Source: Rhodococcoides trifolii (lineage in GTDB: Bacteria > Actinomycetota > Actinomycetes > Mycobacteriales > Mycobacteriaceae). Taken from it: 64,000 nucleotides of DNA. Below are positions 4,012-26,385 of the stretch, in pieces. Both the position numbers and the translations under genes were made by a program. The DNA is taken from positions 124,001 to 188,000 of the forward strand of contig NZ_BMCU01000004.1 of NCBI RefSeq assembly GCF_014635345.1, in the 5' to 3' direction. Under the pieces are notes generated by a model. The model ran no database searches and was not told the origin of the DNA. It worked only from the letters and a program-made list of their open reading frames with translations. The stretch's first letter is position 1. Every line of letters starts with the position of its first letter.

Positions 4012-4686
4012 CTACCGCGCGCGACGAGCCAACCGCTCGGAATCCGAGATCAGCACACTCTTGCCCTCGAGGCGCAACCAACCGCGATGCGCGAAGTCGG
4101 CCAGTGCCTTGTTCACTGTTTCACGTGAAGCACCGACGAGCTGCGCGATCTCTTCCTGCGTCAGGTCGTGGGTGACGCGCAGCGACCCGGCTTCCTGCGT
4201 TCCGAAGCGCTGAGCCAGCTGGAGAAGGGCCTTGGCCACGCGGCCGGGCACGTCGGTGAAGATGAGGTCGGCGAGGTTGTTGTTGGTGCGACGCAGGCGA
4301 CGAGCTAGGACACGCAGCAACTGCTCGGCGATCTCGGGGCGCTGATCGATCCACGCCTTGAGGGCGTCGCGGTCCATGCTTACCGCGCGCACCTCGGTGA
4401 CGGTGGTCGCAGAGGACGTGCGGGGGCCCGGGTCGAAGATGGAGAGCTCGCCGAACATGTCCGACGGTCCCATGATCGTCAGCAGGTTCTCACGGCCGTC
4501 GGGTGACTTGCGGCCGAGCTTCACCTTGCCGGACACGATGATGTAGAGACGGTCGCCGGGCTCGCCTTCGTTGAAGACGACGTGGCCACGCGGAAAGTCG
4601 ACGGGCTGGAGCTGCTTGGTCAGCGCGGAAACCGCTGACGGCTCTACTCCCTGAAAGATGCCGGCCCGTGCCAGAACCTCGTCCAC
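4012..4686 (-). CDS. crp: cAMP-binding Crp/GlxR global regulator
   Basis: A 224-residue CRP/FNR-family regulator, the expected length for Rv3676/GlxR. A cyclic-nucleotide-binding domain spans residues 10-120 with the phosphate-binding cassette [17 protein letters not shown] at 79-95. The dimer helix follows, then a winged HTH at 175-200 ([17 protein letters not shown]). GlxR/Crp in this group binds TGTGA-N6-TCACA palindromes and controls carbon, acetate and respiratory genes. Matching sites occur in this window before acs (18097) and at the Ms1-like RNA (25352), with a weaker one upstream of crp itself (4765). Confidence 0.95.
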
Positions 4687-16110: not shown

Positions 16111-18054
<1,944 letters not shown>

Positions 18055-18096: not shown

Positions 18097-18112
18097 TGTG
18101 AGGGTAGTCACG
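18097..18112. promoter_or_regulatory. Crp/GlxR binding site upstream of acs
   Basis: TGTGA-gggtag-TCACG matches the TGTGA-N6-TCACA consensus at 9 of 10 defined positions. It is centred about 50 bp upstream of the acs start. Crp control of acs is established in relatives; site use here is inferred. Confidence 0.7.
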
Positions 18113-24290: not shown

Positions 24291-25040
24291 ATGACGGATC
24301 CACTGGGCCCCATCCTCGCGCTCCCCGGTGTGCGTGACGCTGCCGAACGTTCTCGTGACGCTCTGGGTGCGGTCCACCGTCACAAGTCGAACCGTCGGGG
24401 CTGGCCGGCGTCGGCTGCCGAGGCGGCCGTGCGCGCGGCGAGAGCCTCCGCGGGGATCGAGGGTGCTTCGCTCGATCTGCCGGCAGAGGGGGAATCGGCG
24501 GATCCGGTGCTGGCCGGTGCACTTCGAGTGGCGCAGGCGCTCGACGGTGATTCTCTGCCGATCATGGTGACGACGTGGCAACGTGCTCCGCTGCAGGCGC
24601 TCGCGCGGCTGCATCTGCTCGCCGCTGCCGACTTGGTGACGGACGCTGATGCACTCGGACGTCCCCGCGGGGACGCGTCCGTCGCCGAGCGGTTGGGTTT
24701 GCTTGCCGACCTCGTCACCGGTGGCACGCAGGTACCCGCGCCGATCGTCGCAGCCGTCGTACACGGAGAGTTGTTGTCCGTGAAGCCGTTCGGCACGGCG
24801 GACGGGGTCGTCGCACGCGCGGCGTCACGGTTGGTGGCGGCGTCGAGCGGTCTGGATCCGCACAATCTCGGTGTTCCGGAGGTGAGCTGGTTGCGCCGGG
24901 CAAGCGCCTACCGTTCCGGCGCCGAGGGTTTCGCGACGGGGTCCGAGCAGGGCGTCGGCAGCTGGGTTCTGCTGTGCTGTGGATCGTTCGAAGCCGGTGC
25001 GACAGAAGCACTCTCGATCGCAGATGCGGCCGCACCCTGA
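24291..25040 (+). CDS. Conserved protein with Fic-like core motif (Rv3662c-type)
   Basis: A 249-residue protein at the conserved position between dppD and the Ms1-like RNA. Seen: an alanine-rich N-terminal half with an AGIEGASLDL segment, then HGELLSVKPFGTADGVVARA near residues 160-180. The latter recalls the HxFxxGNGRxxR core of Fic proteins but lacks several key residues, so AMP-transferase activity is doubtful. Annotations of relatives vary (oxidoreductase or Fic-like). ATG 24291 is chosen because an upstream extension would run antisense through the TPR gene. Confidence 0.7.
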   Translation: MTDPLGPILALPGVRDAAERSRDALGAVHRHKSNRRGWPASAAEAAVRAARASAGIEGASLDLPAEGESADPVLAGALRVAQALDGDSLPIMVTTWQRAPLQALARLHLLAAADLVTDADALGRPRGDASVAERLGLLADLVTGGTQVPAPIVAAVVHGELLSVKPFGTADGVVARAASRLVAASSGLDPHNLGVPEVSWLRRASAYRSGAEGFATGSEQGVGSWVLLCCGSFEAGATEALSIADAAAP

Positions 25041-25044
25041 CAGA

Positions 25045-25340
25045 AAGACGGGCGGCGCCGCCGACTCTCGTCGACCACGCCGCCCGTAAGCACGAATCAG
25101 CCGGTTACCAAGCGTGCGGTATGGGTTGTGGTGAAGACCTTCTTCACGTGGCCTCGGCGAAGAGGTCGGTCAACCGCCGGTTCACGCCGACTTCTGCTCG
25201 ACTTTCGCAGGCCCACAACACTTGTGCCATCAAAGCGGCAAGCTACGCGTGGGTACCTGATATCCGTGCTGGGAAAGCCCGGCTGGGAGAGCGATCCTTC
25301 TCTTCCGGCCCGCTCTTGGCCTTCCGTCTTCCCGTAACTC
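25045..25340 (-). ncRNA. Ms1/MTS2823-like 6S-type RNA locus (by synteny)
   Basis: A gene-free 342-bp gap lies between the Rv3662c-like and Rv3661-like genes. In mycobacteria this exact gap encodes the abundant, about 300-nt RNA MTS2823/Ms1, which binds core RNA polymerase. It is transcribed in the same direction as the Rv3661-type gene, here the minus strand. On that strand I see TTGCTG-N17-TACAAA just after 25371 as a promoter candidate, internal hairpins (for example GTGAAG-acctt-CTTCAC at 25131-25147) and a GC-rich hairpin at 25048-25087 as the end. That predicts about 290 nt. Ends are approximate and the family call is inferred. Confidence 0.65.
25048..25087. terminator. GC-rich hairpin at end of Rv3662c-like gene and Ms1-like RNA
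   Basis: ACGGGCGGC and GCCGCCCGT form perfect 9-bp arms around a 22-nt loop, 8 bp after the stop at 25040. It can end the plus-strand gene and forms the predicted 3' end of the minus-strand RNA. No long U-tract on either side. Confidence 0.6.
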
Positions 25341-25351
25341 CCTTTGTACTC

Positions 25352-25367
25352 TGTGACCGGCCTCACA
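25352..25367. promoter_or_regulatory. Perfect Crp/GlxR palindrome at Ms1-like promoter
   Basis: TGTGA-ccggcc-TCACA is a perfect match to the Crp/GlxR consensus ends. It sits between the candidate -35 (TTGCTG) and -10 (TACAAA) of the minus-strand RNA, where bound Crp would be expected to block RNA polymerase. It is 15 bp beyond the stop of the HAD gene. Confidence 0.65.
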
Positions 25368-25382
25368 GCAAGGGGTCGAACC

Positions 25383-26195
25383 CTAGCGTTTCCTGCGAAC
25401 CAGCCCGTAGGTCGCAGCGCCCGCCAGAACCGCTGCGAGACCGACTGCCGCGGCACCCGCCACCGTTCCGGACGAGGGTGTCTGAAAACGCGCCCGTAGC
25501 GACACCGGGTTGGAGAAGGTGAGTATCGGCCATCCGTTCGCCGCTGCTTCCTTGCGCAAACCGCGATCGGGATTCACCGCAGTGGGGTGACCGACAGCCC
25601 CGAGCATCGGGAGGTCCGTGATCGAATCGGTATAGGCGTACGAGCGTGCCAGGTCGTAGTTTTCGGTGGCCGCCAACGCATTCATGGCGTCGACCTTTCC
25701 CGTTCCATAGCAATAGAAATCGATTTCGCCGCTGTACTTTCCGTCCTCGACCTTCATGCGTGTGGCCGTGCTGTGATCGGCCCCGAGCGCCTCGGCGATG
25801 GGCGTCACCACTTCCTCGCCCGACGCCGACACGATCACCACGTCGTGTCCGCGCAGTTTGTGGTCGGCAATGAGGTCCGCGGCTTCTGCGAACACCAGCG
25901 GATCGACGATGTCGTGCAGGGTCTCTGCCACGATGGCGCGTATCTGCTCGACGTCCCAGCCGGCACTCATGTTGGCGATGTGGATGCGCATCCGTTCCAT
26001 CTGGTCGTGGTCCGCGCCGGACACCAGAAACAGGAACTGCGCATAGCTGCTCTTCAACACGGATCTGCGATTGATCAGCCCTTGGTCGAAGAACGGCTTG
26101 CTGAAGGCGAGGGTGCTCGACTTGGCGATGATCGTCTTGTCGAGGTCGAAGAACGCTGCGATGCGCTTCGGCGTCGATTGTTCGGCTGTATCCAC
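25383..26195 (-). CDS. SerB-like HAD-IB phosphatase with C-terminal membrane tail
   Basis: A 270-residue HAD hydrolase of the IB/SerB subfamily (Rv3661 type). Motif I is FFDLDKTI with nucleophile Asp17 and acid Asp19. Motif II is VIVSAS (near 124-129), and motif III is DSITDLPM (near 188-195). The last 25 residues form a hydrophobic helix ending RRKR, which would tether it to the inner membrane. Start GTG 26195 is placed just before the conserved region; the frame stays open to 26285. The exact substrate is unknown; a phosphoserine-phosphatase-like reaction is the family inference. Confidence 0.82.
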   Translation of the reverse strand: MDTAEQSTPKRIAAFFDLDKTIIAKSSTLAFSKPFFDQGLINRRSVLKSSYAQFLFLVSGADHDQMERMRIHIANMSAGWDVEQIRAIVAETLHDIVDPLVFAEAADLIADHKLRGHDVVIVSASGEEVVTPIAEALGADHSTATRMKVEDGKYSGEIDFYCYGTGKVDAMNALAATENYDLARSYAYTDSITDLPMLGAVGHPTAVNPDRGLRKEAAANGWPILTFSNPVSLRARFQTPSSGTVAGAAAVGLAAVLAGAATYGLVRRKR

Positions 26196-26273
26196 GTATC
26201 TCAGAATAGGTGGGAGTAGGTCGGGCTCGTTCGGACAGTGCGAAGACCTCGCAACCGCGGCGGCGATCGGGTG

Positions 26274-26279
26274 TATTAT
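26274..26279 (+). promoter_or_regulatory. Promoter -10 element of 6C RNA
   Basis: TATTAT, an AT-rich hexamer in a GC-rich context, lies 8 bp before the predicted 5' end of the 6C RNA. The -35 region is not well conserved. Sigma-A-type recognition is inferred. Confidence 0.6.
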
Positions 26280-26286
26280 TTGCATT

Positions 26287-26385
26287 GCCCGGACTTGATC
26301 CGGGTGTGTTCAGCCCGACCCCCCGGGGCTGAACACCGACGACCCCCGCCTCCTCCCCCCTTGGCGGGGGTCGTCCTCTAATTCC
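26287..26385 (+). ncRNA. 6C RNA (B11-type sRNA)
   Basis: Two strong stem-loops each expose six consecutive cytosines, the defining feature of the 6C RNA family. Stem one pairs 26306-26316 with 26326-26336, with C's at 319-324. Stem two is a perfect 13-bp helix, 338-350 with 363-375, with C's at 355-360, and doubles as the terminator before CTCTAATT. A smaller hairpin (CCCGGA/TCCGGG, 26288-26304) precedes them. The location between the SerB-like gene and ssd, on the ssd strand, matches M. tuberculosis B11 (ncRv13660Ac). The size, about 99 nt, also fits. C-rich loops can pair with G-rich ribosome-binding regions of targets. Confidence 0.92.

What the first reader, a model, noticed from the sequence alone, without database searches (positions are those of the whole stretch)
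25041..25382. Ms1/MTS2823-like 6S-type RNA locus with Crp site inside its promoter
The gap between the Rv3662c-like and Rv3661-like genes is the known place of the RNA polymerase-binding RNA Ms1 in mycobacteria. On the minus strand there is TTGCTG-N17-TACAAA, a perfect TGTGA-N6-TCACA palindrome (25352-25367) inside that promoter, and a hairpin end at 25048-25087, predicting about 290 nt. Direct Crp control of a 6S-like RNA would tie cAMP to RNA polymerase storage.
Basis: partly seen in the sequence, partly recalled or inferred. Interest (0 to 1): 0.78.

Follow-up and report, generated by a model that had tools for sequence, protein, structure and literature searches.

The report
Ms1 RNA gene with built-in Crp operator
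The gap holds the gene for Ms1, a known small RNA that binds bacterial RNA polymerase, and its promoter carries a site of the type read by the cAMP-sensing protein Crp, at a place that recurs in many related bacteria and should let Crp switch the RNA off.

Summary
Rfam's Ms1 model (RF02566) matches 25335-25040 on the minus strand over its full length (135 bits, E 1.3e-35; below Rfam's 162-bit cut-off), with the expected neighbours, terminator and a TTGCTG-N17-TACAAA promoter. TGTGA-N6-TCACA (25352-25367) is centred at -24.5, inside the promoter. By rarity alone it means little (3 sites in 5.29 Mb, 3 for the reversed pattern). Conservation is the evidence: the core GTGA-N6-TCAC is intact at exactly this promoter position in 83 of 167 aligned family promoters (13 of 23 genera), 13 of 15 in another family and 94 of 150 listed Mycobacterium matches, while the N6 drifts. 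Spacer shuffles gave none. The window also encodes a Crp 92% identical to PDB 3h3u. Best reading: Crp represses Ms1 in growth and releases it when cAMP falls. Binding, sign and signal are untested. Several clades, including named slow-growing mycobacteria, have lost the site, so Crp cannot be the only control. Ms1 is known; I found no report of a Crp operator in its promoter in the papers searchable here, and one key paper was not held.

The parts
25040..25335 (-). Ms1 RNA, 296 nt by the model, 5' A at 25335
   Evidence: RF02566 positions 1-304, 135.1 bits, E 1.3e-35, below the 162-bit gathering score; consensus fold of 22 relatives
25048..25087 (-). intrinsic terminator hairpin, followed by a U-rich end
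   Evidence: Rfam alignment, fold, 3' end printed
25343..25348 (-). -10 element TACAAA
   Evidence: conserved across 167 family promoters
25366..25371 (-). -35 element TTGCTG
   Evidence: TTG fixed in 167 aligned family promoters by the way they were chosen
25352..25367 (.). Crp-type operator TGTGA-N6-TCACA, centred at -24.5
   Evidence: core intact at this position in 83 of 167 family promoters and 13 of 15 promoters of family f14
25383..26285 (-).
   Evidence: PF12710, E 6.3e-34
   Evidence: open frame ending at 25040; no Pfam family for the part tested, 24327-25040
4012..4686 (-). crp gene, the probable reader of the operator
   Evidence: 224 aa; best PDB match 3h3u, E 4.2e-135; 205 of 224 residues identical, recognition segment identical

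Best explanation
The locus is an Ms1 gene with a sigma-A-type promoter into whose spacer a Crp operator is built. During growth Crp (with cAMP) sits between -35 and -10 and keeps RNA polymerase off, so Ms1 stays low; when nutrients and cAMP fall, Crp leaves, Ms1 is made in bulk and binds RNA polymerase core lacking sigma. Shown by sequence: the RNA family, the promoter, the operator, its conservation at a fixed promoter place, and a Crp orthologue. From papers on relatives: Ms1 binds RNAP core and rises in stationary phase; Crp close to a start site goes with repression; Crp binding and cAMP fall on starvation. Inferred: that Crp binds this site, that it represses, and that cAMP is the signal.
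For: Ms1 identity. Operator locked to the promoter: core intact in 83 of 167 with 44 different N6 among 67 unique intact promoters, 0 in shuffles; 13 of 15 in family f14 with A...T or A...G outer bases; in Mycobacterium 94 of 150 listed matches intact, 15 with one mismatch, 0 with two, 41 with three or more. The dyad's distance to the upstream stop codon varies while its place in the promoter does not. Crp orthologue. Crp near the start site goes with repression, and starvation lowers cAMP and Crp occupancy in M. tuberculosis (PMC4117774, sections 14 and 16). Ms1 rises about 130-fold in stationary M. smegmatis (PMC4191392, section 24) and is abundant in stationary R. erythropolis (PMC9130861, section 21).
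Against: No binding or expression data for this organism. 57 of 167 family promoters have two or more mismatches, with ten of 23 genera lacking any intact member, and MTS2823 of M. tuberculosis still rises ten-fold in stationary phase, so Crp is not needed for induction everywhere. The three sRNAs named with upstream Crp sites in the M. tuberculosis ChIP paper do not include Ms1; its table was not seen. No target centred near -24.5 is in its Table 2. The nearest genome to M. smegmatis by topoisomerase has one mismatch. The inner A and T of the half-sites are no better conserved than the N6, and a G just outside the dyad is as conserved as the half-sites. LexA, CarD and CrsL are also linked to Ms1 or its locus.
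Confidence: 0.66

Rival explanations
1. The operator is read by a different dimeric regulator of the Crp/Fnr family (for example a Cmr-type paralogue), so the signal is not cAMP.
For: A second protein in this genome scores just over the HTH_Crp_2 cut-off (27.7 against 27 bits, L032). Family members can read similar half-sites (general knowledge).
Against: That hit is far weaker than Crp (65.6 bits) and the Crp recognition segment is identical to that of PDB 3h3u. The M. tuberculosis Crp motif is described as similar to that of E. coli Crp (PMC4117774, passages). Presence of the paralogue in the other genera was not tested.
Confidence: 0.14
2. Crp binds but activates, or binds with little effect on Ms1; the site is kept for another reason.
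For: Only a minority of Crp-bound genes change in the crp mutant of M. tuberculosis (PMC4117774, section 16). Ms1 induction persists where the site is lost.
Against: A dimer centred at -24.5 overlaps the DNA that polymerase must hold; the known activating positions lie upstream. Keeping the half-sites while the N6 drifts argues for a use.
Confidence: 0.14
3. The dyad is not an operator: it is a hairpin of the upstream transcript or part of the core promoter.
For: The N6 also tends to be self-complementary (1.5 of 3 pairs on average; about 0.8 would be expected by my own rough estimate from G+C). A G next to the dyad is conserved too.
Against: The dyad is locked to -35/-10 while its distance to the upstream stop codon varies (15 nt in G000, 32, 65 and 88 nt in three others). 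Clades without it keep -35, -10 and the 17-nt spacing, so the promoter does not need it.
Confidence: 0.06

Closest known systems
Ms1 of M. smegmatis / MTS2823 of M. tuberculosis (Rfam RF02566)
   Same: Full-length model match, same neighbours and strand arrangement, start base A, sigma-A-like promoter, terminator. Ms1 homologues in Rhodococcus were reported before (PMC9130861, passages).
   Different: Score below the Rfam gathering cut-off, as in all 37 genus genomes. A Crp operator in the promoter is not mentioned in the 2014, 2022 and 2024 Ms1 papers (0 occurrences of 'crp' in their main texts; supplements not seen).
MTS0997 (Mcr11) sRNA of M. tuberculosis
   Same: An sRNA with a Crp site at its promoter region (PMC3207917, passages).
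   Different: There the site is 107 bp upstream and expression falls without Crp; here the site is inside the promoter, which predicts repression. The RNAs are unrelated families as far as I know (recalled).
6S RNA
   Same: A structured RNA that binds RNA polymerase and accumulates in stationary phase (PMC4191392, passages).
   Different: 6S RNA binds the sigma-70 holoenzyme, Ms1 the core; length about 300 against 150-210 nt; no 6S model matched here.

Membership tests
Ms1 (RF02566) | Match to the covariance model over its full length | tested here: met
   Positions 1-304, E 1.3e-35; 0 of 14 control genomes match
Ms1 (RF02566) | Score over Rfam's gathering threshold | tested here: not met
   135.1 against 162 bits; also 0 of 37 in the genus, 36 of 201 in the family
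Ms1 (RF02566) | Location between the Rv3661-like and Rv3662c-like genes, same strand as the former | tested here: met
HAD gene upstream on the same strand, convergent ORF downstream.
Ms1 (RF02566) | Binds RNA polymerase core without sigma | not testable with these tools
   Shown for relatives only (PMC4191392)
6S RNA | Match to a 6S family model | tested here: not met
   No 6S family in the window at gathering score or at E up to 5 in 24900-25500
Crp operator | TGTGA-N6-TCACA dyad | tested here: met
   Perfect match at 25352-25367
Crp operator | Conserved at the same promoter position in relatives | tested here: met
   Core intact in 83 of 167 family promoters, 27 with one mismatch, 57 with more; 13 of 15 in family f14 and 0 of 2 in f4
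Crp operator | A Crp with the matching recognition helix is encoded | tested here: met
   205 of 224 residues identical to PDB 3h3u, recognition segment identical
Crp operator | Crp binds and changes expression | not testable with these tools
   No binding or expression data for this organism

The most novel reading that the evidence does not exclude
Ms1 was ancestrally gated by cAMP: a Crp operator inside its promoter, older than the split of at least two families of the order, couples the carbon and energy signal to how much RNA polymerase is parked on Ms1. Slow-growing mycobacteria lost it, which would free Ms1 from Crp and help explain why MTS2823 is already the most abundant non-ribosomal transcript in growing M. 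tuberculosis.
Probability: 0.35. Interest if true: 0.78.

Novelty: new variant of a known kind. Interest (0 to 1): 0.6.

Why it matters
What switches Ms1 on was left open in the founding paper, which says that neither the sigma factor nor other proteins at the locus are settled (PMC4191392, section 24). A conserved Crp operator gives a named regulator, a sign and a signal that one gel shift and one deletion can test. It would join second-messenger sensing to the store of RNA polymerase in a group that includes Rhodococcus and mycobacteria, and the natural losses of the site give ready-made comparisons.

Tried and rejected
Rejected: that the palindrome is notable by rarity. Perfect sites are few (3), but the reversed control pattern is as frequent; with TCACR there are 14 places (8 forward and 9 reverse matches) against 3 and 6 control matches. 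Rejected: 6S RNA proper; a hairpin of the upstream gene; a Crp site at the neighbouring 6C RNA in this genome (no core with fewer than 3 mismatches within 350 nt upstream).

Led nowhere: Sikova et al. 2019 on Ms1 control is not held, so a mention of Crp there cannot be excluded. That 3h3u is from M. tuberculosis and 6pcm from M. smegmatis is recalled. I make no claim about the exact site in either species. ORFs beside the other strict sites in the genome gave no clear regulon.

Limits of the counts: one search found Ms1 in 181 of 201 family genomes; about 32 of them, with weaker or unlisted matches (genera g4, g5, g7, g11, g17, g28 wholly, others in part), were not fetched. 173 loci of 171 genomes in 24 genera were read; two weak second hits (L044, L045) were left out before that. 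Six of the 173 were dropped from the 167 (five without a 17-nt spacer, one without a promoter); none of the six has the intact core (best 2-4 mismatches), so the count is 83 of 173 if they are included. One more locus (L146) has the core one base out of register and is counted as lost. The full TGTGA-N6-TCACA is at the position in 19 of 167, in this genus only in G000. In one search, 113 of 150 order genomes had no match; the second weak hit in G302 (L318) was dropped. Of 98 named stretches 80 were listed and used: 33 intact, 4 one mismatch, 43 three or more; Ms1 was confirmed by Rfam in the 8 of them tested. One search's pattern matches 327 of 396 genomes; 150 matches (149 genomes) were listed and counted; it fixes the first G of the core, and the matches were not each checked with the Ms1 model. 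One search's stop-distance script takes the longest open frame and is wrong for some loci (G000: it gave -5, the true gap is 15 nt). One search printed minus-strand loci in the wrong direction and was replaced.

Papers: PMC4191392 (passages and section 24), PMC9130861 (passages and section 21), PMC11077062, PMC3207917, PMC12709188, PMC8628891 and PMC3871856 (passages), PMC4117774 (passages, sections 14 and 16). Searches linking Ms1, MTS2823 or Rv3661 with Crp gave 4, 0, 2 and 1 papers; of these I looked into PMC3207917 and PMC12709188, where the passages seen do not link Ms1 and Crp; the others were seen as listings only. Supplements were not available.

Full report
What is there. The window lies in a 5.29 Mb genome in 15 contigs. 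Rfam's Ms1 model matches 25335-25040 on the minus strand over its full length, 135.1 bits, E 1.3e-35; the whole-window search at gathering thresholds did not report it because Rfam's cut-off is 162 bits. Each of the 37 genomes held for the genus has a full-length match (best E 3.1e-38 to 8.4e-24), none over the cut-off; two have a second, weak match; 0 of 14 control genomes match. In the family 181 of 201 genomes match, 36 over the cut-off. In a consensus fold of 22 chosen members, 27 of 68 pairs have changes on both sides with the pair kept, though the covariation term is modest (-3.98 of -89.53 kcal/mol). The upstream neighbour is a HAD hydrolase on the same strand and the downstream ORF is convergent, as for MTS2823 between Rv3661 and Rv3662c (PMC3207917, passages). 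Ms1 in Rhodococcus was reported before (PMC9130861, passages).

The promoter. Minus strand: TTGCTG (25371-25366), 17 nt, TACAAA (25348-25343), 7 nt, then A25335. The dyad TGTGA-GGCCGG-TCACA (25367-25352) uses the last two bases of the -35 hexamer and fills most of the spacer; its centre is at -24.5.

More than chance? Not by rarity. By place, yes. I read 173 Ms1 loci of the family; 172 have a TTG...TA promoter and 167 a 17-nt spacer. At the homologous position the core GTGA-N6-TCAC is intact in 83, has one mismatch in 27 and two or more in 57; 13 of 23 genera have at least one intact member, 10 have none; in the window's own genus the figures are 23, 11 and 3 of 37. None of the six dropped loci has it. 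Two hundred shuffles of each spacer gave no intact core and 0.045% with one mismatch. The 67 unique intact promoters hold 44 different N6: half-sites are kept while the middle drifts. Genus-weighted information is 0.8-1.1 bits for CACR of the right half against 0.2-0.6 in the N6; the inner A and T of the half-sites (0.43, 0.46) are no better than the N6, and a G just outside the dyad is also conserved (1.24 bits). These loci share ancestry, so the counts are not independent. On a tree of the RNA the state changes at least 14 times (two or more mismatches against fewer) or 18 times (intact against the rest), which fits an old site lost repeatedly, though such counts cannot tell gain from loss.

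Deeper. Two loci of family f4 lack it (loci). Of 30 loci taken after the HAD gene in a class-level sample of 79 genomes, 5 were of this family (4 with a dyad) and 25 were not: one of these (G426) has CGTGA-N6-TCACA in a similar promoter setting and 24 have none near the stop codon (Ms1 was not confirmed in each).

Mycobacterium. A pattern fixing the -35, the G after it and the -10 region is found in 327 of 396 genomes; of the 150 matches listed, 94 have the intact core, 15 one mismatch, none two and 41 three or more. Among 80 named records (of 98 found) 33 are intact, 4 have one mismatch and 43 three or more. Intact ones include M. peregrinum, M. senegalense, M. septicum, M. brisbanense and M. 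wolinskyi; degenerate ones include M. szulgai, M. scrofulaceum, M. colombiense and M. triplex, most with GGTCTAGTAG or a near variant instead. That the first set grows fast and the second slowly is general knowledge; there are exceptions (M. fragae, L246, slow by recall, is intact). The M. tuberculosis promoter was not available.

The reader of the site. The window's crp gene (4012-4686 minus) encodes 224 residues, 205 identical to PDB 3h3u (M. tuberculosis Crp by recall), with an identical recognition segment.

How it probably works. In M. [quoted passage not shown] starvation lowers cAMP and Crp occupancy (PMC4117774, sections 14 and 16). A dimer centred at -24.5 should block polymerase. Ms1 rises about 130-fold in stationary M. 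smegmatis and binds core RNAP. Put together: Crp-cAMP represses Ms1 in growth and lets go in starvation. The chain from operator to repression is inferred.

Against a simple version. Many lineages lack the operator, and MTS2823 is still induced ten-fold. The M. tuberculosis ChIP paper does not name Ms1 among the three sRNAs with upstream sites, which fits a lost site but proves nothing, and no target near -24.5 is in its Table 2. CarD/CrsL depletion and LexA have also been linked to Ms1 or its locus. Crp is at most one input.

Verdict. A known RNA, correctly recognised; the operator in its promoter is real and conserved. I found no report of it in the searches made (one key paper not held). 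Interest 0.6.

Noticed in passing
L174 and L179 (second copies in G054 and G079, genus g19): A second Ms1-like RNA (107 and 103.9 bits) besides the main one, without the usual promoter (L174 has none of the TTG...TA type); several other genomes list two matches.
   Followed up: no
window 18097-18112: Another strict Crp-type site, TGTGA-N6-TCACG, about 50 bp upstream of ORF 16111-18054 minus, which looks like acetyl-CoA synthetase (name recalled from its sequence, not from a search).
   Followed up: partly
window 26304-26379: 6C RNA on the plus strand (81.5 bits), next to the start of the HAD gene; the M. tuberculosis Crp ChIP paper names a site upstream of ncRv13660c, which I recall to be 6C/B11, but no good Crp core lies upstream of it here.
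   Followed up: partly
L200, L239, L248 and other slow-growing Mycobacterium loci: Where the operator is lost the spacer is not random: many share GGTCTAGTAGTACAAAGG, perhaps a different control element.
   Followed up: no
L301-L307, L310, L312-L315 (family f14): A conserved block around ACCGGTGCAC some 45-60 nt upstream of the RNA start, a possible second regulator site.
   Followed up: no
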